A DNA stretch of 64,000 nucleotides from Desulfovibrio sp. Fe33 (GTDB lineage Bacteria; Desulfobacterota; Desulfovibrionia; Desulfovibrionales; Desulfovibrionaceae). Every line of letters starts with the position of its first letter. Positions within the stretch are counted from its first letter, which is position 1. The position numbers and the translations under genes were made by a program. Location: contig NZ_JAQKGU010000008.1 in the NCBI RefSeq assembly GCF_028532725.1, positions 62,001 to 126,000 of the forward strand, given 5' to 3'. Shown piece by piece: positions 6,675 to 18,081 of this stretch. The notes beneath the pieces were generated by a model that did no database searches, had not been told where the DNA came from, and was given only the letters and a program-made list of their open reading frames with translations.

Positions 6675-6775
6675 AACCTCCCCTGGCCCAGGCCGGTTTA
6701 TACAGACAATGCTCTGTTTTATCATTGCTTCTTTTTCGGGTCCCCTGTACCGTAACAAGGTCTTCAGGAGAACCG

Positions 6776-9706
6776 ATGAAAGGCGACGAACGCAAGACCA
6801 AAGCTGAGCTTATCGCGGAGCTCGACGAGCTCCGCGCCCACCTCGACGACATGCGGAACCGGGGTGGAACTCCCATAGCGGACGAACTCCCGCTGTTCAT
6901 CTTCGAGCTCGACCGCAACGGCTTCTTCCGCCATGTCAACGAATACGCTCTTGAGGTTTTCGGCTACACGCAGGAAGACATCCGGGCCGGACTCTCCCTC
7001 CACGACATCATCCACCCCGACGCCATCGAGCTTATTTTCCGCAACCTCGCAAAAACGTTGGTATCCGACTTCTTTGAAACGGAGGAGTATCCGGCCCTGC
7101 GCAAGGACGGCTCCTCCCTGCCCATCAAGATATTTTCACAACCGCTGAAACGGAACGGAGAAGTCGTGGGCCTGCACGGCGTGGCCATCGACATGTCCGA
7201 AATCCGCCAGGTGGAAACCGCCCTGCGTTCCAGCGAATGCCACTACCGCACGCTGTTTGAAACCACCGGCACGGCCATGGTCCTCATGGACAAAGACTCG
7301 GTCATCAAAAGCTGCAACTCCCAGTTCTGCGTCATATCCGGTTTTCGCCGCGAGGAAGTAGAAGGCCGCATGACCTGCATGGATTTCATGCCCCCCGAAG
7401 AAGCGATGCTCATTGCCGGACACAGGGAAAGCCTGACCGAGGGAATGCCCAACCACCCCCTCAGCGACTACGAGTTCAACTTCCTTCCCAGGAACGGCGA
7501 GCCCCGCCGCATCCACGTATACATCCGCGACATCCCCGACACGAACGACCAGGTTTGCTCCCTCATCGACGTCACAGTGCGCGACGAGGCCCTGCACGCG
7601 TTGCGCAAGAGCGAAGAGCGATACCAGCTCATGGCGCGCGGAGCCAACGACGGCCTTTGGGACTGGACGCTGTCCAGCGACGAAGTCTTCTATTCCCAAC
7701 GCTATCGCGAGATTCTCGGCTACACCGAAGAGGAATTTCCCAATCACGCGAGTTCCTGGCTGAACAGCTTGCATCCCGACGACCGAGAAAGGGTCATCGC
7801 CGCCAACAAGGAATGCGCCGAAGGCAGGATCGAACAATTCGAACTGGAATTCCGCCAGATTCACAAAGACGGCTCCATTCGGTGGATACTCGGCAGGGGC
7901 GCCAGCTCCCGGGACAGTCACGGCAATATCTACCGGATATCCGGGACCCACTCGGACATAACCCAGCGAAGGCAGGCCGAGGACGCCCTGCGCGAAAGCG
8001 AGGAACGCTTCCGGCTGATGATCGAGCACGCCAGCAGCGGCATCTTCCAGTCCACCCCGGAAGGGAAGTTCCTGACCGTCAACCCGGCCCTCGCCGCCAT
8101 GCTCGGCTACAATTCGCCCGAAGAAATCATCGCCGACGTCGACAACATCGGTACGGACATCCTCATTTCCGCCCGGAACCCCGAGACGTTCCTGGACGAA
8201 ATGCGCGCCGGGGGCGAGCTGCTGAACCACGAATACCATTGCAGGCGAAAAGACGGCGCCGCCATCTGGCTGGCCGGCAGCACCCGGCTGGTCCGCGACC
8301 CGAACGGCGAAATAGCCTATATCGAAGGGTTCCTGCAGGACATCACCGCGCGAAAACTCAACGAGCGCACCACGCACGCCCTGTACGCCATTTCCGCCGC
8401 GGTCAACACCACCCGGAATCTCCAGGACCTGTACCAGACCATCCACGCCATCATAGGCGAAGTCATCGTGGCCAAGAACTTCTTCATCGCCATGCTCGAC
8501 GAAGAACGGGACATGCTCCGCTTCGTCTATTTCCGGGACGAGATGGACGACTATTACGACATCCCCAATATCAGCGACCCCGCCCAAAGCAGCCTGGCCA
8601 TCCACGTCTTCAGAACCGGCGCGCCGCTGTTCCTGTCCATTTCCGAGTCGGGCATGGATGCGCGGCTTGCCGCCATCGGGGTGATCGGCACCACGCCCGC
8701 CACATGGCTGGGCGTGCCGTTGCGGCAGGGCGACAAGGTGGTCGGGACCATGGTCGTGCAGGACTACGACAATCCCCGGCAGTACTCCGAGGAGGCCGTG
8801 ACCTTCATGACCGCCGTGTCCGAACAGGTGGCCCTCGCCATCGAGCGCAAAACCATTGAGGAGGCGCTGACCCGGCTCAACGAAGAGCTTGAGGACAAGG
8901 TGGAGCAACGCACCGCCGAAATCGAAACCCGCAAGGCCGAACTCGAAGAGGCCAACCGGCGGCTGATGACCCTCGACGAGGTCAAGTCATCCATGGTCTC
9001 GTCGGTCTCCCACGAACTGCGCACCCCGCTGACCTCCATCCGGGGCTTCGCCAAGCTCTGCGCCAAGGACTTCGTCCGGTATTTCCACCCACTGGCCGAC
9101 AGCGACAAGCTCACCGCCAAGGCCCTGCGGATTCGGGACAACCTGGGGATCATCGACACCGAAGGCGAGAGACTCACCCGGCTGATAAACGATTTCCTGG
9201 ATATCAACCGCATCGAATCGGGCAGAGAGTGCTGGAACGACGCCCGGCTCAACCCCTGCGAGGTAATCCGCGAAGCCGTGGCCTCGGCCGCCGGAGGCTT
9301 CAACGGGTCCAAGGACGTGGAGCTCTTCACGTTCCTGCCCGAGACCTGCCACGACATCCACGCCGATCCCGACAAGATCAAGCAATTGCTCATTAATCTC
9401 CTCAACAATGCCTACAAATTCACCAGAAAAGGCCGCGTCACCGTGTCCATGGCGGAAAACGAAAAGGCCCTGACCGTGTCCGTCAGCGACACCGGCCTGG
9501 GTATCCCCTCGGACGAACTGGACAAAATTTTCGAGAAGTTCCACAAGTCCCGGCTGGGCGACACGGTCCGCAACGGCGAAAAAGGGACCGGCCTGGGCCT
9601 GGCCATCTGCAAGGAGATCGTGGAGCACTACGGCGGCGCAATAGGCGTCCAGTCCATCGAGGGCAGCGGCAGCGTCTTCACCTTCAGCCTCCCCACCGCC
9701 CCCTAG
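6776..9706 (+). CDS. Large cytosolic PAS/GAF sensor histidine kinase
   Basis: Of 976 residues, with no membrane segment or signal peptide. A coiled N-terminus is followed by four PAS domains (roughly 25-145, 155-270, 275-410 and 415-535, several with PAC endings such as GVAIDMSEIRQ and SGTHSDITQRR), then a GAF domain (about 545-700), a coiled coil, HisKA with SHELRTPLTSIRG (His about 746), and HATPase_c with NLLNNAYKF, DTGLGIP and GTGLGLAI. The ATG at 6776 has AGGAG five bases upstream; an in-frame start at 6725 is less likely. No response regulator gene is adjacent, so the partner is unknown. The downstream gene set (rnf) has a sigma-54-type promoter; a regulatory link is only a guess. Confidence 0.92.
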   Translation: MKGDERKTKAELIAELDELRAHLDDMRNRGGTPIADELPLFIFELDRNGFFRHVNEYALEVFGYTQEDIRAGLSLHDIIHPDAIELIFRNLAKTLVSDFFETEEYPALRKDGSSLPIKIFSQPLKRNGEVVGLHGVAIDMSEIRQVETALRSSECHYRTLFETTGTAMVLMDKDSVIKSCNSQFCVISGFRREEVEGRMTCMDFMPPEEAMLIAGHRESLTEGMPNHPLSDYEFNFLPRNGEPRRIHVYIRDIPDTNDQVCSLIDVTVRDEALHALRKSEERYQLMARGANDGLWDWTLSSDEVFYSQRYREILGYTEEEFPNHASSWLNSLHPDDRERVIAANKECAEGRIEQFELEFRQIHKDGSIRWILGRGASSRDSHGNIYRISGTHSDITQRRQAEDALRESEERFRLMIEHASSGIFQSTPEGKFLTVNPALAAMLGYNSPEEIIADVDNIGTDILISARNPETFLDEMRAGGELLNHEYHCRRKDGAAIWLAGSTRLVRDPNGEIAYIEGFLQDITARKLNERTTHALYAISAAVNTTRNLQDLYQTIHAIIGEVIVAKNFFIAMLDEERDMLRFVYFRDEMDDYYDIPNISDPAQSSLAIHVFRTGAPLFLSISESGMDARLAAIGVIGTTPATWLGVPLRQGDKVVGTMVVQDYDNPRQYSEEAVTFMTAVSEQVALAIERKTIEEALTRLNEELEDKVEQRTAEIETRKAELEEANRRLMTLDEVKSSMVSSVSHELRTPLTSIRGFAKLCAKDFVRYFHPLADSDKLTAKALRIRDNLGIIDTEGERLTRLINDFLDINRIESGRECWNDARLNPCEVIREAVASAAGGFNGSKDVELFTFLPETCHDIHADPDKIKQLLINLLNNAYKFTRKGRVTVSMAENEKALTVSVSDTGLGIPSDELDKIFEKFHKSRLGDTVRNGEKGTGLGLAICKEIVEHYGGAIGVQSIEGSGSVFTFSLPTAP

Positions 9707-9981
9707 GACGCCCGGCCGCGCCGAACGGTCGGAAAAAACACGACAAAACAACCCGGTCCGCAAATACGGAATCCGGCCTCCCGGGCGTACGGTTTACCGC
9801 CCGCGAAACCTTTCACCCGGCCCTCGAACGCCCGGCGTCAACTCCCTTCGCCAATAATAACCGGTTACGTCTTGTTCAATATTGCACAAGAGCGATTTCC
9901 CCCGGTCTTCCGCACAGGACGCCTGTACGTTTTTTCGGACTGAACAGAGATCGCCGTATCTTGGGATTTTTTTCCCAAGCC

Positions 9982-10397: not shown

Positions 10398-10874
10398 TTG
10401 CAAAGCAGATACTTCCCCATTGCCGTCTTAATCGCAGTGTGCATCGCCACGGCCGTGGCTGGATACGCGATTTTCCCGCCGGACAAAAACGAACCGGTGC
10501 GGGTTGTCATGGACAACACGGGCGGAAGGGTCATTTTCACTCACAACGCCCACTTGGACGACTACGGTTTCGACTGTACCGACTGCCACCACGACGACAC
10601 CGGCCTGGACACGTTCCTGCCCTGCGGCTCCTGCCACCCGTCCGAATTCGACGAGCGGTTCCGGAAAGAGCATCCCAACAACTTCCCGGACACCGAAGCC
10701 TGCCTGCGCTGTCATGACGAAGTTCCCGAAGGCCCCCTGAACGAAGACGAGCGTCCCGACATCGCCAACATTCCGTTGCGCGCCGACGCATTCCACGGCC
10801 AGTGCATGGGATGCCACGAGGAAAACGGCGGTCCCTTCGGCGACGACTCCTGCAATGAGTGCCACGCGAGGTAG
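10398..10874 (+). CDS. Rnf-associated periplasmic pentahaem cytochrome c
   Basis: A 158-residue exported c-type cytochrome, first gene of the rnf operon. An uncleaved or cleaved N-terminal hydrophobic helix (about 5-26) places it in the periplasm or anchors it. There are five haem motifs: CTDCH (60-64), CGSCH (76-80), CLRCH (102-106), CMGCH (136-140) and CNECH (152-156). The remaining histidines are exactly five (49, 52, 65, 92, 133), enough for bis-His ligation of every haem. The fold is likely cytochrome c3-like with one extra haem. The start is TTG at 10398 with GAGG upstream; no ATG gives a signal sequence. It probably exchanges electrons between the Rnf complex and the periplasmic cytochrome pool; this role is inferred from context. 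Its stop lies two bases before rnfC. Confidence 0.9.
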   Translation: MQSRYFPIAVLIAVCIATAVAGYAIFPPDKNEPVRVVMDNTGGRVIFTHNAHLDDYGFDCTDCHHDDTGLDTFLPCGSCHPSEFDERFRKEHPNNFPDTEACLRCHDEVPEGPLNEDERPDIANIPLRADAFHGQCMGCHEENGGPFGDDSCNECHAR

Positions 10875-10876
10875 AC

Positions 10877-12022
10877 ATGCTCAAGATACACTACTCCCTT
10901 GACTCCGGTCTGAACGAGTCCATCACCCCCATCGACGCTCCCAAGGTCCTGAACATCCAGAAGCGCAACCTGGTGTTGCAGGCCAAGAAGGGTCAGAGCG
11001 TGCGCCGGGGAGAAATCCTGGCCAAGCACCCTTCCCCCTTCGGCGGCGCGTACCACGCCGCGGCTTCGGGCAAGGTGACGGCCATCAACGAGCATAATCT
11101 GACCATCTCATGCGACGGCGGCGACGAGACGATCGATGCCGTGGACGTGCGATCCATGGGCGTGGGCAAGGACCTTCTGCGCACCCTCCAGGACCTCGGC
11201 ATCGACGTGGCACCCTATTCGGGCAAGGCCGAGACCCTCGTCATCAACGGGCTGAACCCGGAACCGGGCATCTCCGTAGCCCAGCAGTTGCTCATGGATG
11301 AAAGCGATATCATCCAGGCCGGACTGGACATGGCCCGCAAGCTCCTGACTCCCGGCCGCACGGTCCTGGCCGTGGGCAAGGGAGAAAAATTCAAGCTGTC
11401 CGGAGCCGAGACCGTGGGCATCAAGCCCAAGTATCCCCGCTCGCTGGACGCGCTGGTCGTGCGCGACATCACCGGCAGGGAATTTCCTGCCGACACCAAG
11501 ATCGTCAGCGTCATGGACCTCCACGACCTGGGGCGCGTGGTCCTCACGGGCCTGCCCGTCATGGACACGGTCCTGACCATTGACGGCAGGAACTACCGCG
11601 TTCCGCTCGGGACCCCCATCAGACATCTGCTGGACACCGTCGGCATACAGCCTTCCTCCGGAGACATCGTGGTCCTCGGCGGCCCCTTCCGGGGCGAGGC
11701 CGTATACAGCCTCGACGAGGGCGTCACCAAGAACGACTACGGCCTCTTCATCATCCCCTCGAGCCGCTTCCCCAAGGTGCAGGACGCCCCCTGCATCAAC
11801 TGCGGCGAATGCGTGCTCAACTGTCCGGCGCGGGTCCAGCCGCACCTCATCAGCCGATGCGCCGAGTACGACAAGTTCGAAATGGCGGAAAAACACGGCC
11901 TGCACAGTTGCTTCGAATGCGGCCTGTGCGCCTTCCACTGCTTCGCCAGGCGGCCGCTGCTGCAATACATCCGGTTCGCCAAGGCCCAGCTCAAGGCCAG
12001 CAGGCAGACTGAACAGGCATAG
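10877..12022 (+). CDS. rnfC: Rnf complex subunit RnfC (divergent; NADH/FMN loop not seen)
   Basis: Peripheral iron-sulfur subunit, 381 residues. The N-terminal part has the barrel-sandwich/biotinyl-like region (VLQAKKGQSVRRGEILAK, HAAASGKVTAI). Two [4Fe-4S] sites are at the C-terminus: CINCGECVLNCP and CFECGLCAFHC. In typical RnfC and NuoF the FMN/NADH loop reads GxGGAxFPTxxK and is followed by NGAECEPYL. Here the equivalent region reads LGIDVAPYSGKAE and INGLNPEPGIS, so the glycine-rich loop appears lost. It may therefore not be the NADH-oxidising subunit in this organism. ATG 10877 starts two bases after the cytochrome stop; the in-frame upstream start at 10859 would overlap. Tightly coupled to the cytochrome gene. 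Confidence 0.9.
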   Translation: MLKIHYSLDSGLNESITPIDAPKVLNIQKRNLVLQAKKGQSVRRGEILAKHPSPFGGAYHAAASGKVTAINEHNLTISCDGGDETIDAVDVRSMGVGKDLLRTLQDLGIDVAPYSGKAETLVINGLNPEPGISVAQQLLMDESDIIQAGLDMARKLLTPGRTVLAVGKGEKFKLSGAETVGIKPKYPRSLDALVVRDITGREFPADTKIVSVMDLHDLGRVVLTGLPVMDTVLTIDGRNYRVPLGTPIRHLLDTVGIQPSSGDIVVLGGPFRGEAVYSLDEGVTKNDYGLFIIPSSRFPKVQDAPCINCGECVLNCPARVQPHLISRCAEYDKFEMAEKHGLHSCFECGLCAFHCFARRPLLQYIRFAKAQLKASRQTEQA

Positions 12023-12073
12023 GCCCCGGACAACCCCGAAATTTTGACTCGAACTCCAAGGAAGATATAGAGA

Positions 12074-13045
12074 ATGACCCCTCCCATCATCAAGGCGATG
12101 TCCGACATCGCAGTGCGCCTGACGGTCTCTCCGCCGCCATATTGGCGAAACGGCAGGACCATCCGGAAAATGATGCTGGCGCACCTGCTCGCCCTCGCCC
12201 CGGCGGCGGTCATGGCCGTCGTCATGTACGGCCTCCCCGCGGCTTCCGTCATCGCTCTCGCCGGAGCCACGGCGACGCTGGCCGACGCGGCGTTCCTCAA
12301 GCTGCAACACCGCGACATCGACGTCGACGACTTCACCGCATTTTACGCGGGCGTGCTGTTCGCCTTCCTGCTCCCGGCCACCGCGCCCTGGTGGCTGGTC
12401 GCCATAGGCGCGATCGTGACCATCGGCCTGGGCCGCACCGTGTTCGGCGGCTTCGGCTGCAACCCGGTCTGCGCGCCCCTGGTGGCCTGGGCCGTGTGCC
12501 GCCTTTCCTGGCCCGCCGAAATGGACATCGACCTGAATCTCATCCACTTCGCCATCAACAGCCCGGTGGACCAGCTCATGTACTTCGGCGTCGAGCGCCT
12601 CGACCAGTTCAACACCCTGGACCTGCTGCTCGGCCGCCAGCTCGGCGGACTCGGCTCCTCACAGGTCCTGGCCCTGGCCGTCGGCGGCGTGTTCCTCCTG
12701 GCCACCCGCTGGATTCGCGTCTTCATCCCCGCCGCCTTCCTCTTCGGCGTGGCCGGGACAGCCGCTATCTTCTGGTACATCGATCCCACCGTCTACGCCT
12801 CGCCTGTCTTCCACCTGGTGACGGGCAGCACGGTGTTCGGCGCGTTCTTCCTGGCCACCGACACCGCTTCCAGCCCGGTGGGCAAACTGCCCCAGATCGT
12901 GTTCGGCCTCATTGCGGGCGCCATGGTGGTCCTCATCAGGGCCTACGGCGTCTACCCGGACGGCGTTCCCTTCGCCGTCATGACCGCCAGCCTTCTCAGC
13001 CCCCTGCTGGAACGGCTCCGGCCCAAATTCTTCGGAGTCAAGTAG
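12074..13045 (+). CDS. rnfD: Rnf complex membrane subunit RnfD (divergent; covalent-FMN Thr motif not seen)
   Basis: Polytopic membrane subunit of 323 residues, about ten hydrophobic helices, in the NqrB/RnfD family. Family features include the start (SPPPYWRNGRTIRKMM), GLGRTVFGGFGCNPVCAPL and the late motif HLVTGSTVFGAFFLATD. Usual RnfD proteins carry a TSATPL or SGATPL motif whose threonine holds a covalent FMN, followed by GSIGETS. Here the same place reads INSPVDQLMYFG and then LGGLGSSQVLAL, with no such threonine motif. The subunit should still form the ion path with A and E. ATG at 12074 lies 51 bases after rnfC with AAGGA upstream. Confidence 0.9.
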   Translation: MTPPIIKAMSDIAVRLTVSPPPYWRNGRTIRKMMLAHLLALAPAAVMAVVMYGLPAASVIALAGATATLADAAFLKLQHRDIDVDDFTAFYAGVLFAFLLPATAPWWLVAIGAIVTIGLGRTVFGGFGCNPVCAPLVAWAVCRLSWPAEMDIDLNLIHFAINSPVDQLMYFGVERLDQFNTLDLLLGRQLGGLGSSQVLALAVGGVFLLATRWIRVFIPAAFLFGVAGTAAIFWYIDPTVYASPVFHLVTGSTVFGAFFLATDTASSPVGKLPQIVFGLIAGAMVVLIRAYGVYPDGVPFAVMTASLLSPLLERLRPKFFGVK

Positions 13046-13047
13046 TC

Positions 13048-13617
13048 ATGCGCGAAATACTTCATATGCTCGTGGTCCTGTCCCTGATCTGCGCGGCGTC
13101 GGGCACCATCCTGGTCAACCTCAAGCAGGCGACCAAGGGGCAGATCGAACAGCAGGTCCTGACCTATGTACAAGGCCCGGCCCTCATGTCGGTTCTCAAG
13201 AACTGCGACAACGACCCCATCGCCGAACGGATGCAGGTCGGCGATGTGACCGTGTTCCCGGCCAAACGCGACGGCAAGCTCGTGGGCGTGGCCCTGGAGA
13301 CGTTCGCCCCCGGCTATTCCGGCGACATCGGCGTCATCGTCGGTTTCGACCTGGACCAGGACCGCCTCCTCGGCATCGGCGTCACCACCCAGACGGAAAC
13401 CCCGGGACTCGGCACCAAGGTGGCCAAGCCCAGCTTCACCAAGCAATTCACCGCCCACGGCCTGGATTCCATGGACCTGGCCTCGCGCGGCGGCGACATC
13501 GACGGCATTTCCGGCGCGACCTTCTCCTCCGGGGGAACCGTGGACGCCGTGCGCAAGGCCATCGACATCTACCGGACCATCAAGCCCCAGCTCGCCACCC
13601 TGTGGCAGGCTTCCTAG
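13048..13617 (+). CDS. rnfG: Rnf complex subunit RnfG (covalent FMN carrier)
   Basis: Periplasm-facing flavoprotein subunit of 189 residues with one N-terminal membrane helix (about 5-22). The FMN-binding domain carries DGISGATFSS (about 151-160); the threonine in SGAT is the site where ApbE attaches FMN by a phosphoester bond. TPGLGTK upstream is also typical. The frame is open upstream to 12142 across rnfD, but ATG 13048, two bases after the rnfD stop, gives the normal protein. This subunit likely meets the pentahaem cytochrome. The apbE gene at the end of the operon supplies the flavin-transfer enzyme. Confidence 0.95.
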   Translation: MREILHMLVVLSLICAASGTILVNLKQATKGQIEQQVLTYVQGPALMSVLKNCDNDPIAERMQVGDVTVFPAKRDGKLVGVALETFAPGYSGDIGVIVGFDLDQDRLLGIGVTTQTETPGLGTKVAKPSFTKQFTAHGLDSMDLASRGGDIDGISGATFSSGGTVDAVRKAIDIYRTIKPQLATLWQAS

Positions 13618-13628
13618 GGAGGAGCACC

Positions 13629-14306
13629 ATGAGCGACATCAAAAAGGAATTCCTCAAAGGCCTGTGGGACGAGCTGCCGCCCTTCCGCGTGCTGCTCGGC
13701 CTCTGCCCCACCCTGGCCGTCACCTCCACGGCGGAAAACGGCCTCGGCATGGGCGCGGCGGTCATCTTCGTCCTGACCCTGTCCAACATCATCATCTCGG
13801 CCATGCGCAAGATCATTCCGCCCAAGGTCCGCATCGCCTGCTTCATCGTGGTCACGGCCTCCCTGGTCGTCGCGGTTGAACTGCTCATGCAGGCGAACGC
13901 CTACCCCCTGTACCAAAAGCTCGGCATCTTCGTGCCCCTCATCGTGGTCAACTGCCTGATCCTGGGCCGCGCCGAAGCCTTCGCCTCGCGCAACGCCATC
14001 CTCCCGTCCATCGCCGACGCGCTGGGCATGGGCATCGGCTTCGCGGCCTCCCTGACTTTCCTCGGAGGCGTCCGCGAGCTCTTCGGCAACGGCACCGTGT
14101 TCGGCATCCCGGTCATGTGGGCGAACTTCAAGCCCGCCCAGTTCATGGTCATGGCCCCCGGAGCCTTTGTCTGCCTCGGTCTCATCCTGGCGGGCATGAA
14201 CGCCTTCAACCGCCGCCAGAGCCGCAAGAAGGGCGAAACCGAGTCCGCCGTCCAGAATTCCACCTGCGCCTCCTGCGGGGCGTGCAACGCCTGCGACGGC
14301 CGATAG
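13629..14306 (+). CDS. rnfE: Rnf complex membrane subunit RnfE with an extra Cys-rich tail
   Basis: Six-helix membrane subunit of 225 residues, paralogue of RnfA with inverted topology. LCPTLAVTST (Cys near 26) and VVNCLILGRAEAFAS (Cys near 108) hold the cysteines that, with those of RnfA, ligate the membrane-embedded [2Fe-2S] cluster. Unusually, after the basic RRQSRKKGE segment the protein ends in STCASCGACNACDGR, four Cys spaced CxxCxxCxxC. This could bind an extra metal or cluster on the cytoplasmic side. ATG 13629 has GGGAGGAG upstream; 12 bases after rnfG. Confidence 0.94.
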   Translation: MSDIKKEFLKGLWDELPPFRVLLGLCPTLAVTSTAENGLGMGAAVIFVLTLSNIIISAMRKIIPPKVRIACFIVVTASLVVAVELLMQANAYPLYQKLGIFVPLIVVNCLILGRAEAFASRNAILPSIADALGMGIGFAASLTFLGGVRELFGNGTVFGIPVMWANFKPAQFMVMAPGAFVCLGLILAGMNAFNRRQSRKKGETESAVQNSTCASCGACNACDGR

Positions 14307-14318
14307 GAGCGTTCGGAA

Positions 14319-14894
14319 ATGGAATACTTCATGCTCTTCATCTCGGCGATATTCATCAACAATATCGTCCTGGTCCAATATCTTGGAACGTGCCCGTTCA
14401 TGGGCACCTCCAAGTCCACCGACGTGGCCCTCGGCATGGGCGGCGCGGTCATCTTCGTCATCATGATGGCCACGGGCATCACCTGGCCCCTGCATCACTA
14501 CGTCCTCGTGCCCTACGGCATCGAGTACCTCCAGACCATCGTCTTCATCCTGGTCATCGCCTCGCTGGTGCAGTTCCTGGAGATGTTCCTCCGGAAGCTG
14601 GTGCCGCCCCTGTACAAATCGCTGGGCCTGTTCCTGCCTCTCATCACCACGAACTGCGCGGTGATGGGCGTGGCCATCATGGTCCAGCGGAACGGATACT
14701 CATTCACCAAGTCCATGCTCTACGGCCTCGCCTCGGGCATCGGTTTCCTGGTGGCCCTGGTCATCATCTCCTCCATCCGCGAACGGCTCGACTTCATGCC
14801 CGTTCCCGCCGTGTTCCGCGGCGTGCCGGTGGCCCTGATTACGGCCGGAATCATGTCGCTGGTCTTTTTCGCCTTCAAGGGCATGGCCGCCTAA
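14319..14894 (+). CDS. rnfA: Rnf complex membrane subunit RnfA
   Basis: Six-helix subunit of 191 residues, normal length. It forms the core of the ion-translocating membrane part together with RnfE and RnfD. Conserved cysteines lie in YLGTCPFMGTS (about 25) and TTNCAVMGVA (about 113), the RnfA ligands of the buried iron-sulfur cluster. FINNIVLVQYLG and ALGMGGAVIFV match the family closely. It begins 12 bases after rnfE with TAGGAG upstream. Confidence 0.96.
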   Translation: MEYFMLFISAIFINNIVLVQYLGTCPFMGTSKSTDVALGMGGAVIFVIMMATGITWPLHHYVLVPYGIEYLQTIVFILVIASLVQFLEMFLRKLVPPLYKSLGLFLPLITTNCAVMGVAIMVQRNGYSFTKSMLYGLASGIGFLVALVIISSIRERLDFMPVPAVFRGVPVALITAGIMSLVFFAFKGMAA

Positions 14895-14916
14895 CCAAAG
14901 CCAAGGAAAACTGAAC

Positions 14917-17031
14917 ATGGTTACTTCCTCCATACTCGTATTGTTTATTCTGGGACTGAGCGCGGCCGCCGTGCTGGCCGTCGCCTCCCGCGTTCTCCAT
15001 GTGCAGGAGGACCCGCGCATAGCCAGGGTCGAGGGTTGTTTCCCCGGCGCAAACTGCGGCGGTTGCGGATACCCCGGCTGCTCGGCTGCGGCGGCCGCCG
15101 TCGTGAAGGGCGACGCCGCCCCGGAAATCTGCGTGGCGGGCGGCCCGGAAATCGCCCGGAACATCGCCTCCATCATGGGCACCGAGGTCGCCTTCAAGGA
15201 ACCCAAGGTCGCCAACAACATCTGCACGGGCGGCTCCCGCGCCAACCTCCTCTTCGATTACGAAGGCATCAACGACTGCCGGGCCGAGGCGCTGCTCCAC
15301 GGCGGCGAAAAGTCCTGCGGCCTCGGCTGCATCGGCATGGGCTCCTGCGTCAAGGTCTGCAGTTTCGACGCCATCCGCCTCAACAGCCAAGGGCTGCCCG
15401 TCGTGGACTGGCACGCCTGCCGCTCCTGCGGCAAATGCGCCGAAGTCTGCCCCACCGGGGCCATCCGCGTATCCGGCATGACCATGGACCTGCTGCACCT
15501 CAACAAGGTCGACGACTGCCTGGCCCCCTGTATGCAGAAGTGCCCGGCCCAGATCGACGTTCGCAGCTACATCCAGCAGATGAAAAAGGGCGACATGCGC
15601 GGCGCGCTCACCACCATGAAGGAACGCAACCCGCTTCCCCTGGCCGTGGGCCGTCTCTGCCCCGCCCCATGCGAAAACATCTGCCGCCGCAAGATTGCTG
15701 ACCACGGCGTGGCCATCCACACCCTGCACCGCTTCGTCGCGGACTGGGAAATGAACTCCGGCAGCCGCGTCAAACTGAAATGCAACCCCTCCTCGGGCCA
15801 CAAGGTCGCCATCATCGGCGGCGGCGCGGCGGGCCTGACCTGCGCCTATTTCCTGCGCCGCATCGGCCATGATCCGGTCATCTTCGAAAAACGCGAGCGC
15901 GTGGGCGGCATGATGCGCGGAGTCATTCCCGAGTACCGCCTGCCCCACAAGGTGGTGGACTGGGAAGTGCAGACCATCCTGGATCTCGGGGTGGAAGTGC
16001 GAACCGGCATGACCTTCGGCACGGATGTGACCCTCGACACCCTCAGGGAAGAAGGATTCGAAGCCGTATTCATGGCCACCGGAGCCTGGACCGTTCCCCC
16101 GCTGGGCATAGAAAACGACAATGCGCGCGGCGTGATGGACTCGATCACCTTCCTGGACGGCGTGGGCGAAGCCTTCTCCGACCTCAAGGGCAAAAGGGTC
16201 GTGGTTGTCGGCGACACCAACACAGCCATGGATGTCGTCCGAAGCGCCGTTCGCCTCGGCGCGCGCGTGACCTCGCTCATCGGCTGCGCCGAGCGCAAGA
16301 TGGACGCCAACAAGAACGAAGTGCAGCGGGCCATGGAGATCGGAGCGGACCTCATGTTCCTCACCGCCCCCGCCCGCCTGCTGGTCGAAAACGGCGCGGT
16401 CACTGGCGTTGCCTATCACGAACTGGCCTATGCCGATCCTGAAAAATGCGCGGGCAAGCTCTCGCCGGTAAAAGACTCCGAAGGCGCTCTCGAAGCCGAC
16501 CTGGTCATAACGGCCACTGACCGGCTGGCCAACGGCGCGGCCTTCACCGACGAGCACGGCGACCCCCTGTTCGACCTGGACAAGAAGACCGGTGCCATCA
16601 AGACGGACCCCGCCTCCCTGCAAACCAGCATTCCGTACGTCTTTGCGGGCGGCGAGGCCGCCACGGGCCGCAACATCCTGATCCAGGCCGTTGCCGACGC
16701 CCGCCGGGCCGCCCGGGCCATCCACCACTTCATTACCGAGGACGCCATCCCCGAGCCCAAGAACCCGCAGCTTCGCGTCATCCCCGAGTCCATCCTCAAG
16801 AACATGGAAGTGCACTACACCATTCCGCGCATTCAGGTCCCCGTGCTCAGCGTGGCGGACCGGAAGCACACCTTCAAGGAAGAAGTGCAGGGCGGCATCA
16901 CGTACGAGGCGGCCCGCAAGGAGGCCAGCCGCTGCCTGCGCTGCGGCCTGACCTGCTACGACTCCGAGGCCGGAGCCGAATACGCCCAGGACGCCGACGT
17001 GCACCCCTTCAACGAAGCCGACGGAAAGTAG
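14917..17031 (+). CDS. rnfB: RnfB fused to a GltD-like NAD(P)H flavoprotein oxidoreductase
   Basis: At 704 residues this is far longer than a normal RnfB. The N-terminal membrane helix (4-24) is followed by the RnfB cluster motif with Cys 41, 47, 50 and 55 (CFPGANCGGCGYPGC), then two ferredoxin-type sites (CGLGCIGMGSCVKVC, about 134-148; CRSCGKCAEVCP, about 168-179). From about residue 195 a second module begins, like the beta subunit of glutamate synthase: Cys-rich CLAPCMQKCP and CPAPCENICRRK, FAD loop VAIIGGGAAGLTCAY (about 297-311), and NAD(P) loop VVVVGDTNTAMD. A C-terminal CLRCGLTC adds more Cys. So one chain could carry electrons between NAD(P)H, FAD, several clusters and the membrane. 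It suits an operon whose RnfC lacks the NADH loop. It starts 22 bases after rnfA and is followed by apbE. Confidence 0.94.
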   Translation: MVTSSILVLFILGLSAAAVLAVASRVLHVQEDPRIARVEGCFPGANCGGCGYPGCSAAAAAVVKGDAAPEICVAGGPEIARNIASIMGTEVAFKEPKVANNICTGGSRANLLFDYEGINDCRAEALLHGGEKSCGLGCIGMGSCVKVCSFDAIRLNSQGLPVVDWHACRSCGKCAEVCPTGAIRVSGMTMDLLHLNKVDDCLAPCMQKCPAQIDVRSYIQQMKKGDMRGALTTMKERNPLPLAVGRLCPAPCENICRRKIADHGVAIHTLHRFVADWEMNSGSRVKLKCNPSSGHKVAIIGGGAAGLTCAYFLRRIGHDPVIFEKRERVGGMMRGVIPEYRLPHKVVDWEVQTILDLGVEVRTGMTFGTDVTLDTLREEGFEAVFMATGAWTVPPLGIENDNARGVMDSITFLDGVGEAFSDLKGKRVVVVGDTNTAMDVVRSAVRLGARVTSLIGCAERKMDANKNEVQRAMEIGADLMFLTAPARLLVENGAVTGVAYHELAYADPEKCAGKLSPVKDSEGALEADLVITATDRLANGAAFTDEHGDPLFDLDKKTGAIKTDPASLQTSIPYVFAGGEAATGRNILIQAVADARRAARAIHHFITEDAIPEPKNPQLRVIPESILKNMEVHYTIPRIQVPVLSVADRKHTFKEEVQGGITYEAARKEASRCLRCGLTCYDSEAGAEYAQDADVHPFNEADGK

Positions 17032-17034
17032 AAG

Positions 17035-18081
17035 ATGAAAGACAATTCACTCTCCAGACGCACGCTCCTGCGCACCCTCAGCCTGCTGGGGCTGGGCGCG
17101 GCCTGCGCACCCGCCCCGTCCCTGGCCGCGGTTTGCCTGACCGAAACCGGCCCCGATGCCGGCAACCGGCGCATGGTGGTCGAGAACCGCTTCCTCATGG
17201 GAACCTTCGTGGCCATAACCGCGGTGCATGACTCACGCTCCCGGGCTGAGCATGCCATGGGGCTGGCCTTTGAGGAAATCGAACGCCTCAGCGCGATCTT
17301 CGACCGCCACCGGAGCGACACGCCGGTCTCGCATCTCAACGACACCGGCGTATTGCGCGACGCCGACCGCGAGTTGCGCGAGGTGGTGCAAGAGTCCCTG
17401 GCCTACGCCCGGCTCTCCGGCGGGGCCTACGATCCCACGGTGCTGCCCGCGGTCGAGCTGCTCAAGGCCAAGGCCAACCCCACCGGCCGGATGGACCTTT
17501 CCGACGGCGAACTGCGCGAGGCCCTGGCCCTGGTGGACAGCACCGCCGTGCGCGTCTCCGGCAACGATATCCGCCTGACCAGGCGGGGCATGGGCCTCAC
17601 CCTGGACGGCATGAGCAAGGGATACATAGTGGACCGCGCCTCGGAGGTCCTGTCCGCCAACGGCGTGACCGACCACCTCATCAACGCGGGAGGCGACATG
17701 CGGGCCTGCGGCGAGCGCGCTCCGGGCAAGCCCTGGACCGTGGCTATCGAGGACCCCAGGGGCCAGGGCGACTACCCCGCGCTGGTGCATCTCCGGGATG
17801 CGGCCATCGCCACTTCCGGCGGCTACGAAGTCCGCTACGACGCCACAGGCTCCCACCACCACGTGGTCGATCCCCGCACGGCCAAATCCCCCACGCGCAG
17901 TATCAGCGTCTCGGTGATCGCGCCCTCCGTCATGCGGGCCGACGCCCTTTCCACAGCCGGATTCGTCCTGCCGCCCCGCGAGGCGGTACGCATGATCGAC
18001 GCCGTGGAAGGAGCCGAGTGCATGATCGTCGGCAACACGGGAGCCAAAACCCGATCCGCCCGCTGGCGGGCGATCGGCTGA
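17035..18081 (+). CDS. apbE: FAD:protein FMN transferase (ApbE family)
   Basis: Transfers the FMN moiety of FAD to a threonine in RnfG-type proteins, using Mg2+. The protein has 348 residues. The N-terminus SRRTLLRTL with a following hydrophobic stretch and ALA-like cleavage region looks like a Tat signal, so it acts in the periplasm where the RnfG flavin domain lies. Family motifs: MGTFVAITAVH, FDRHRSDTPVSHLN, GGAYDPTVLP, LDGMSKGYIVDRA, NAGGDMRACG, and HHHVVDPRTAKSP. It starts three bases after the rnfB stop, is the last gene of the operon, and is followed by a strong terminator. Confidence 0.95.
   Translation: MKDNSLSRRTLLRTLSLLGLGAACAPAPSLAAVCLTETGPDAGNRRMVVENRFLMGTFVAITAVHDSRSRAEHAMGLAFEEIERLSAIFDRHRSDTPVSHLNDTGVLRDADRELREVVQESLAYARLSGGAYDPTVLPAVELLKAKANPTGRMDLSDGELREALALVDSTAVRVSGNDIRLTRRGMGLTLDGMSKGYIVDRASEVLSANGVTDHLINAGGDMRACGERAPGKPWTVAIEDPRGQGDYPALVHLRDAAIATSGGYEVRYDATGSHHHVVDPRTAKSPTRSISVSVIAPSVMRADALSTAGFVLPPREAVRMIDAVEGAECMIVGNTGAKTRSARWRAIG

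What the first reader, a model, noticed from the sequence alone, without database searches (positions are those of the whole stretch)
10877..17031. Rnf complex with the NADH-oxidising role apparently moved from RnfC to an RnfB-GltD fusion
Seen: RnfC keeps its two [4Fe-4S] sites but the region that should read GxGGAxFPTxxK reads LGIDVAPYSGKAE, and NGAECEPYL is NGLNPEPGIS. RnfB has a full GltD-like FAD and NAD(P) module (VAIIGGGAAGLTCAY, VVVVGDTNTAMD) after its ferredoxin sites. Known: in studied Rnf, RnfC binds NADH/FMN and RnfB takes electrons from ferredoxin. Inference: here a single RnfB chain may handle both pyridine nucleotide and ferredoxin ends, while RnfC has become a structural or electron-relay subunit.
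Basis: partly seen in the sequence, partly recalled or inferred. Interest (0 to 1): 0.85.

Follow-up and report, generated by a model that had tools for sequence, protein, structure and literature searches.

The report
NADH-site-less Rnf pump with cytochrome partner
In this sulfate reducer an ion-pumping enzyme complex has lost the site where such complexes usually exchange electrons with NAD, and the flavin module fused to its ferredoxin subunit, which might have taken over that job, has lost its own nucleotide-binding signature too, so its electrons probably go to a periplasmic cytochrome instead.

Summary
The sequence facts hold: RnfC (10877-12022) lacks the FMN/NADH loop but keeps both [4Fe-4S] sites, and RnfB (14917-17031) is fused to a GltD-like flavin module. 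The inference that the NADH role moved to RnfB is not supported for this locus. (1) Of 107 Rnf loci sampled in the phylum, 90 have a degenerate RnfC: 53 with the fusion, 29 scored as plain RnfB (26 clean), 8 without RnfB. The loss goes with a multiheme cytochrome c ORF in 78 of 90, against 0 of 17 canonical loci. (2) In the window's clade the module lost its NADP(H) signature (15 of 15; 22 of 22 decaheme-clade fusions keep it). The host genome has two operons of each kind. (3) The FMN-carrying threonine of RnfD, present in 17 of 17 canonical loci, is absent in 85 of 90. So the limb from RnfG back to NAD+ has lost both of its FMN sites, while RnfB, the RnfA/E cluster and the RnfG flavin site remain. 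A 2024 paper calls such operons rnfB-less; the RnfB part is fused, not lost. All mechanism is inferred.

The parts
10398..10874 (+). N-terminally anchored pentaheme c3-type cytochrome c gene, directly upstream of rnfC (anchor judged by eye)
   Evidence: 5 CxxCH; Pfam Cytochrom_CIII E 3.2e-11
10877..12022 (+). rnfC, degenerate: FMN/NADH loop missing, two [4Fe-4S] sites kept
   Evidence: TIGR01945 172.6 bits, below its cut-off of 245.95; alignments; AF2 model pLDDT 93.1; best PDB matches RnfC Z 33.8-36.6, full-length NqrA Z 27.4-29.5
11195..11233 (+). place where canonical RnfC has GxGGAxFPTxxK (reads LGIDVAPYSGKAE)
11246..11275 (+). NGLNPEPGIS in place of NGxECEPYLT
11792..11941 (+). two [4Fe-4S] motifs of RnfC (C306-C316, C345-C355)
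   Evidence: all eight kept in 90 of 90 degenerate and 17 of 17 canonical RnfC
12074..13045 (+). rnfD
   Evidence: PF03116 276.9 bits
12560..12562 (+). RnfD Ser163, at the column of the FMN-carrying Thr of canonical RnfD; the [ST]xATPL motif is absent
   Evidence: Thr in 17 of 17 canonical, 5 of 90 degenerate loci; [ST]xAT in 16 of 17 and 1 of 90; role of the Thr from PMC9588780 and PMC11889175 passages
13048..13617 (+). rnfG, with FMN motif SGAT
   Evidence: PF04205 FMN_bind 60.1 bits; Thr159 in 88 of 90 degenerate loci, Ser in 2
13629..14306 (+). rnfE
   Evidence: Cys35 in 90 of 90 and Cys118 in 89 of 90 degenerate loci
14319..14894 (+). rnfA
   Evidence: Cys25 and Cys113 in 90 of 90 degenerate loci
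14917..17031 (+). rnfB-GltD fusion, 704 aa
15055..15450 (+). 14 RnfB cysteines, C47-C178
   Evidence: each invariant in 53 of 53 fusions
15517..15684 (+). Fer4_20 cysteines C201-C256 (two [4Fe-4S] clusters expected)
   Evidence: PF14691; five of six invariant in 53 of 53, C201 in 50
15727..15729 (+). His271, position of the proximal-cluster ligand (Lys170 in StnC, Glu in NfnB)
   Evidence: Lys in 38 of 38 fusions outside the pentaheme clade, 0 of 15 inside it; ligand roles from PMC10482914 passages, position from the alignment
15805..15849 (+). first Rossmann motif, FAD (VAIIGGGAAGLTCAY), intact
15937..15939 (+). Arg341, aligned with Arg239 of StnC (Arg201 of NfnB) beside the FAD
   Evidence: invariant in 53 of 53 fusions; alignment; role
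16198..16302 (+). second Rossmann: GDTNTAMD and LIGCAERKM in place of GGGNTAMD and YRRxRxEM; nucleotide signature lost
16933..16956 (+). C-terminal CxxCxxxC of the fusion (C673, C676, C680), role unknown
   Evidence: 53 of 53 fusions
17035..18081 (+). apbE, FAD:protein FMN transferase family
   Evidence: PF02424 E 5.1e-66

Best explanation
This is an Rnf-type redox-driven ion pump of a cytochrome-associated class that no longer exchanges electrons with pyridine nucleotides. Reduced ferredoxin delivers electrons to RnfB; they cross by the RnfA/E cluster to the RnfG flavin on the outer face and leave to the multiheme cytochrome c (or run the other way to make reduced ferredoxin). The return limb of ordinary Rnf is broken: RnfD lacks its FMN-attachment motif and RnfC its FMN/NADH loop, although RnfC keeps two [4Fe-4S] clusters of unknown present use. 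The GltD module on RnfB began as a StnC-like NADP(H) port wired to the Fe-S chain, in place of the C-terminal ferredoxin domain of RnfB. It is probably still open in the decaheme clade, including two paralogous operons of this genome. In the window's pentaheme clade the port is closed: FAD site and clusters remain, nucleotide binding is very likely lost, and the FAD is reached from the Fe-S side, as in ferredoxin-dependent flavin thioredoxin reductases. Shown: gene content, motif losses, their distribution and tree positions. Inferred: every electron-transfer step, direction and ion.
For: RnfC loop loss in 90 of 107 loci, with RnfB fused (53), scored plain (29, 26 clean) or not found (8); an ORF with 3 or more CxxCH in 78 of 90 of these against 0 of 17 canonical; in the family sample 57 of 57 against 0 of 3. 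RnfD FMN-Thr: 17 of 17 canonical, 5 of 90 degenerate, with the motif only in L159. Kept: RnfC eight Cys 90 of 90, RnfA Cys 90 of 90, RnfE Cys 90 and 89 of 90, RnfG FMN Thr 88 of 90. GltD: GxGxxA kept in 0 of 15 pentaheme against 22 of 22 decaheme fusions. Columns conserved in the decaheme clade survive at 13 of 52 NADP-domain positions against 147 of 236 elsewhere, Fisher p 1e-6. K271 changed in 15 of 15, kept in 38 of 38 others. Best PDB relatives of the module are NfnABC and StnABC; StnC is described as a non-bifurcating NADPH shuttle. No PF01512 protein over cut-off found in the host genome. An attempt to show ferredoxin-coupled NAD+ reduction in Desulfovibrio alaskensis vesicles was unsuccessful (PMC4841214 passage). 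Precedent for losing GxGxxA/HRRxxxR and using ferredoxin.
Against: A mutant in the operon cytochrome of D. alaskensis had no fitness defect on ethanol, formate or H2, only in one pyruvate fermentation experiment. In 12 of 90 degenerate loci no ORF with 3 or more CxxCH was found in the fetched stretch. RnfC keeps its clusters in 90 of 90, which a purely periplasmic exit does not explain; the ATD Asp of RnfD is Asp or Glu in 89 of 90, so part of RnfD's flavin machinery may persist. The window has Ser, not a wholly different residue, at the RnfD FMN-Thr column. The NGxxxEP strand of the RnfC flavin site partly survives (N in 73 of 90, E or D in 86 of 90). Nine NADP-domain positions changed to new conserved residues, so the site may bind a nucleotide in another way. 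The PF01512 search rang over cut-off in Methanosarcina acetivorans, so the Methanosarcina parallel may not extend to RnfC. No ligand modelling was possible.
Confidence: 0.58

Rival explanations
1. One reading: the GltD module of RnfB took over the pyridine nucleotide reaction from RnfC, so one chain handles both ferredoxin and NAD(P).
For: The fusion occurs only with degenerate RnfC (53 of 53; 0 of 17 canonical loci have it). In the decaheme clade the NADP(H) signature is intact in 22 of 22. Parallel with NqrF/NqrA, where the NADH site moved and NqrA kept only remnants (PMC4014512 passages).
Against: In this locus the GxGxxA and YRR signature is lost, as in 15 of 15 of its clade (one Arg of the pair is left in L063 and L065). 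26 clean degenerate loci have an RnfB without GltD, so RnfC loss needs no such take-over. Where the signature is intact it points to NADP(H), not NADH.
Confidence: 0.13
2. The fused module does flavin-based electron bifurcation like NfnB, splitting NAD(P)H electrons between ferredoxin and the membrane chain.
For: NfnB-type fold and Arg341 in 53 of 53; Glu at the proximal-cluster position in 6 of 15 pentaheme fusions.
Against: That position is Lys, as in the non-bifurcating StnC, in 38 of 38 fusions outside the pentaheme clade (roles); His in the window; the nucleotide site needed to feed the flavin is lost here.
Confidence: 0.06
3. Compatible with the best explanation: the pentaheme-clade module has a new two-electron substrate, such as a protein disulfide or another phosphate-bearing molecule, at the remodelled second Rossmann domain, reduced by ferredoxin through RnfB.
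For: Nine NADP-domain columns switched to other residues conserved at 85% or more, including E461K in RKMxANKxE; FFTR precedent of ferredoxin-fed FAD reducing a disulfide.
Against: No substrate identified; a redox-active CxxC near the flavin was not looked for; the NADP domain keeps the smallest share of conserved columns of the protein.
Confidence: 0.18
4. RnfC still binds FMN and NADH through a remodelled site; the alignment gap overstates the loss.
For: NGxxxEPG strand partly kept, resembling a NuoF motif (recalled); three of the four RnfCs in this genome give sub-cut-off PF01512 matches; AF2 fold matches NADH-bound RnfC 9eri at Z 35.8.
Against: The G, GGA, F and K positions that are invariant in 17 of 17 canonical RnfCs are mostly replaced or gapped in the 90; PF01512 scores stay below cut-off; the RnfD FMN-Thr that would feed it is absent in 85 of 90.
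Confidence: 0.07

Closest known systems
Rnf complex (ferredoxin:NAD+ oxidoreductase; A. woodii, C. tetanomorphum, A. vinelandii)
   Same: Subunits in CDGEAB order; RnfA/E cysteines and RnfG FMN site kept; RnfC fold
   Different: RnfC FMN/NADH loop and RnfD FMN motif absent; RnfB carries GltD in place of its C-terminal ferredoxin domain; cytochrome c gene in the operon
Methanosarcina acetivorans Rnf with multiheme cytochrome c
   Same: Ferredoxin-fed Rnf co-transcribed with a multiheme cytochrome c; reported not to interact with NAD or NADP (PMC4023990 passages)
   Different: No RnfB fusion mentioned in the passages seen; its RnfC was not examined here, and the PF01512 search rang over cut-off in that genome
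StnC of the Stn transhydrogenase (8oh5) and NfnABC (9bov, 9n5u)
   Same: GltD domain with Fe-S clusters and FAD feeding an Fe-S chain; 33-37% identity in the Foldseek alignments
   Different: Here fused to membrane RnfB; NADPH signature lost
[quoted passage not shown]
   Same: Very probably the same operons, with a cytochrome gene and a flavoprotein gene at the end
   Different: That paper reports rnfB as lost (passages); the RnfB part is fused, not lost. RnfC or RnfD site loss is not mentioned in the passages seen
Na+-NQR (NqrF, NqrA)
   Same: A flavoprotein with an RnfB-like membrane anchor and an RnfC homologue without NADH site, as proposed in PMC4014512 (passages)
   Different: NqrA is described as having no clusters; RnfC here keeps both; the module is GltD-type, not FNR-type

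Membership tests
Rnf complex | RnfA, B, C, D, E, G homologues in one operon | tested here: met
Rnf complex | RnfA/E cluster cysteines and RnfG FMN threonine | tested here: met
Canonical ferredoxin:NAD+ Rnf | RnfC FMN/NADH loop GxGGAxFPTxxK | tested here: not met
   TIGR01945 172.6 bits, cut-off 245.95
Canonical ferredoxin:NAD+ Rnf | RnfD covalent-FMN threonine in [ST]xATPL | tested here: not met
   Ser163 without the motif
Canonical ferredoxin:NAD+ Rnf | ferredoxin-dependent NAD+ reduction | not testable with these tools
   needs protein
GltD/Nfn/Stn NADP(H) module | FAD Rossmann motif and N-terminal Fer4_20 cysteines | tested here: met
GltD/Nfn/Stn NADP(H) module | second Rossmann GxGxxA and YRR for NADP(H) | tested here: not met
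   met in decaheme paralogues L032, L034
NfnB-type bifurcating flavoprotein | glutamate ligand of the proximal cluster | tested here: not met
   His271 in the window; position from the phmmer alignment, roles
Cytochrome-coupled (Methanosarcina-like) Rnf | multiheme cytochrome c gene in the operon | tested here: met
Cytochrome-coupled (Methanosarcina-like) Rnf | electron transfer from ferredoxin to the cytochrome | not testable with these tools
   needs membranes or protein
Na+-NQR | NqrA without Fe-S clusters and FNR-type NqrF | tested here: not met
   RnfC keeps 8 Cys; module is GltD-type

The most novel reading that the evidence does not exclude
A large share of the Rnf complexes of this phylum, this one included, are not ferredoxin:NAD+ oxidoreductases at all but half-loop ferredoxin:periplasmic cytochrome c ion pumps that dropped both FMNs of the return limb. 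One lineage bolted an NADPH port onto RnfB, and the window's clade then closed that port and reused the ferredoxin-fed flavin for a different, still unknown two-electron substrate.
Probability: 0.33. Interest if true: 0.87.

Novelty: new variant of a known kind. Interest (0 to 1): 0.7.

Why it matters
Rnf is treated as a ferredoxin:NAD+ pump in models of energy conservation in Desulfovibrio (PMC4215793 and PMC4841214, passages seen). If this class has neither an RnfC NADH site nor the RnfD flavin that feeds it, those electron budgets need revision, and the long-discussed link between the rnf operon and its cytochrome c becomes directly testable. The four paralogues in one genome, two with and two without an NADP(H) signature, make a natural comparison.

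Tried and rejected
Tried: a family-only tree rooted on three canonical loci put the fusion inside a grade of plain RnfB. Wider sampling reversed this: the plain clade of the window's family lies inside fused lineages. The AU test rejects the 34 fused rows as one clade against 30 plain ones (p 2.5e-29; quick tree, and the group was tested after trees had been seen). The RnfB of that plain clade groups with canonical RnfB (supports 0.89 and 0.94, FastTree, midpoint root), so GltD was probably lost there by RnfB replacement. Whether RnfC erosion came before the fusion is unresolved: the plain group L151/L152/L113/L118/L106 is basal among degenerate loci, but the three of them in the tree stand at an open fork.

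So which RnfB type the model species carry was not tested. Pereira et al. 2011 is not held. Full-text searches for RnfB with GltD (none), with glutamate synthase and with fusion/flavoprotein showed no description of this fusion in the listings; I did not read most of the listed papers. The AF2 model of the fusion is poor in its RnfB half (mean pLDDT 71.9) and was used for fold matching only.

The RnfD result came out of this check; because of it I raised the best explanation from 0.50 to 0.58, the novel case from 0.30 to 0.33 (its interest from 0.85 to 0.87) and interest from 0.64 to 0.70, and lowered three of the four rivals slightly.

Selection and drops: from the RnfD rows I fetched 60 and 60 regions; rows that looked like NqrB, and others for want of calls, were left out. 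107 loci (the window among them) passed the filter RnfC+D+E+A with RnfC over 150 bits. The 29 'plain' degenerate loci include two cut by a contig end (L054, L107) and one broken fusion (L138); the 26 clean ones include L159. RnfB not found: L157 has only about 760 bases left on its contig beyond rnfA. The 69-row tree left out 38 of 107. 'Cytochrome' means any ORF with three or more CxxCH in the fetched stretch. In one search one pentaheme row (L065) counts as keeping RR only because of a shifted RR.
Full report
What is there. The operon runs cytochrome c (10398-10874), rnfC (10877-12022), rnfD, rnfG, rnfE, rnfA, rnfB-GltD (14917-17031), apbE (17035-18081), all on the plus strand. RnfC scores 172.6 bits against TIGR01945, below its cut-off of 245.95, and only residues 117-170 touch the Nuo51 FMN domain, below cut-off. 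Aligned with canonical RnfCs it lacks about 18 columns around GGAxFPTxxK and the NKP loop. RnfB residues 1-190 match RnfB and residues 201-685 match GltD-type proteins; the best solved relatives are in NfnABC, StnABC and Nfn complexes.

Sample. One of them (G087) holds the same DNA as a record of Desulfovibrio sp. ZJ369 (L084 and L165), so I take the window's family and phylum as those of Desulfovibrio. In the family, 55 of 119 genomes had an RnfD match and I fetched 60 regions; in the phylum, 113 of 297, and 60 regions.

How common it is. Of 107 loci that passed the filter, 17 have the canonical RnfC loop; all 17 have RnfB without GltD and no ORF with three or more CxxCH. The other 90 have a degenerate RnfC: 53 with the fusion, 29 with RnfB scored as plain (26 clean), 8 with no RnfB found; 78 of 90 have such a cytochrome ORF. 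In the family sample alone it is 57 of 57 degenerate and 0 of 3 canonical. So in this sample the fusion implies a degenerate RnfC, but not the reverse. Named examples of the fusion are a Pseudodesulfovibrio MAG (L164) and two Desulfobacterales MAGs (L167, L171); the Clostridia, Bacteroidetes and Spirochaeta loci fetched have the canonical loop and no multiheme cytochrome ORF.

Which limb is kept. Structures of canonical Rnf show a U-shaped path: RnfB, RnfA/E cluster, RnfG FMN, RnfD FMN and riboflavin, RnfC clusters and FMN, NAD+ (PMC9588780 and PMC11889175 passages). In the degenerate class the rising limb is kept: RnfB cysteines (53 of 53 fusions), RnfA cysteines 90 of 90, RnfE cysteines 90 and 89 of 90, RnfG FMN threonine 88 of 90. 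The returning limb has lost its two FMN sites: the RnfC loop, and the RnfD threonine that carries FMN, which is Thr in 17 of 17 canonical but 5 of 90 degenerate loci; the [ST]xAT motif is there in 16 of 17 and in one of 90, L159, which groups with canonical loci. The window has Ser163 there without the motif. Not lost are the RnfC clusters (90 of 90) and an acidic residue in the ATD segment of RnfD (Asp 53, Glu 36 of 90), so RnfC may still have an electron-transfer use that I cannot name.

History. The degenerate loci separate from the canonical ones except L159. The plain-RnfB clade of the family lies inside fused lineages, and the AU test rejects the fused loci as one clade (p 2.5e-29). The RnfB of that plain clade groups with canonical RnfB. 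The simplest account is that the fusion is older than the family and was replaced in one branch, leaving complexes with neither an RnfC FMN site nor a GltD module. Whether RnfC decayed before the fusion is not settled.

The GltD module. In all 22 decaheme-clade fusions the second Rossmann motif reads GGGxTAxD and is followed by YRR. In the window's pentaheme clade 15 of 15 lack the second glycine of GxGxxA and the RR pair (L063 and L065 keep one Arg of it). Of columns conserved in the decaheme clade, 13 of 52 in the NADP domain survive in the pentaheme clade against 147 of 236 in the rest of the protein (Fisher p 1e-6), and against the two FAD regions alone 49 of 97 (p 0.003). Nine NADP-domain positions changed to another conserved residue, so this is remodelling as well as decay. 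The first FAD motif, Arg341 (53 of 53) and the Fe-S cysteines stay; the second FAD motif reads GGE instead of GGD in this clade. The proximal-cluster position, Lys in StnC and Glu in NfnB (PMC10482914 passages), is Lys in 38 of 38 other fusions and His (7), Glu (6), Gln or Leu in the 15 of this clade. That makes the ancestral module StnC-like, a non-bifurcating NADPH shuttle. A second set of fusions elsewhere in the phylum (L108, L111, L121, L124, L132, L139, L153) has also lost part or all of the nucleotide signature.

The host genome. It carries four fused rnf operons: L032 and L034 (decaheme, signature intact), L033 and the window (pentaheme, signature lost). A search of the whole genome found no PF01512 protein over cut-off, only sub-cut-off matches in three of these RnfCs.

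Reading. With both FMN sites of the return limb gone and a cytochrome c gene in the operon, the likeliest outlet is from RnfG to the cytochrome, as proposed for Methanosarcina (PMC4023990 passages). Against it, the cytochrome mutant of D. alaskensis had no defect on ethanol, formate or H2 and mattered only in one pyruvate fermentation experiment, and RnfC keeps its clusters. For it, an attempt to show ferredoxin-coupled NAD+ reduction in D. alaskensis vesicles was unsuccessful; which form that species carries was not tested. The retained FAD with a lost nucleotide signature resembles ferredoxin-dependent flavin thioredoxin reductases, which lack GxGxxA and HRRxxxR (PMC10880999 passages) and use ferredoxin (PMC12796991 passages).

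What is in print. PMC11434368 (passages) reports that many Desulfovibrionaceae lost rnfB and have an FAD-dependent oxidoreductase gene instead; the RnfB part is retained, fused to it, with 14 cysteines invariant in 53 of 53 fusions. PMC4046663 (passages) notes an rnfCDGEA plus cytochrome operon. A link from the cytochrome pool to Rnf was proposed earlier (cited in PMC4287179, passages). I found no statement on the lost RnfC or RnfD flavin sites in the passages read; the searches were made, in one open-access library only.

Noticed in passing
L032, L033, L034 and window 10398-18081: Four RnfB-GltD rnf operons in one genome, two decaheme with intact and two pentaheme with lost NADP(H) signature; of 14 sampled genomes with the pentaheme type, 10 also gave a decaheme locus.
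   Followed up: partly
L115, L128, L130, L133, L137, L156, L157, L105: rnfCDGEA loci with degenerate RnfC and no RnfB found in the fetched stretch; six of the eight have a cytochrome ORF; L105 has a separate GltD-type gene about 1.1 kb downstream of rnfA.
   Followed up: partly
L108, L111, L121, L124, L132, L139, L153: Fused modules in other families that lost part or all of the NADP(H) signature, and in which the second FAD motif GGD is also changed.
   Followed up: no
window 16933-16956: C-terminal CxxCxxxC of the fusion invariant in 53 of 53; possibly a further Fe-S site.
   Followed up: no
window 11792-11941 and relatives: RnfC clusters conserved in 90 of 90 loci that lack the FMN loop and, nearly always, the RnfD FMN threonine: what they still do is unexplained.
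   Followed up: partly
window 9872-9889: Palindrome TTGTTCAATATTGCACAA upstream of the operon that resembles a Rex operator (resemblance recalled; Rex control of rnf is cited in PMC4215793, passage).
   Followed up: no
L138 9297-9895: RnfB and GltD fragments in separate short frames, a broken or mis-assembled fusion.
   Followed up: no
L159: An rnf locus in another gene order whose RnfC lacks the FMN loop but whose RnfD keeps the FMN motif, without cytochrome, grouping with canonical loci: an apparently separate case.
   Followed up: no
window 6725-9706: Large gene upstream of the operon that reads like a multi-PAS sensor histidine kinase (judged from the translation, no family search).
   Followed up: no
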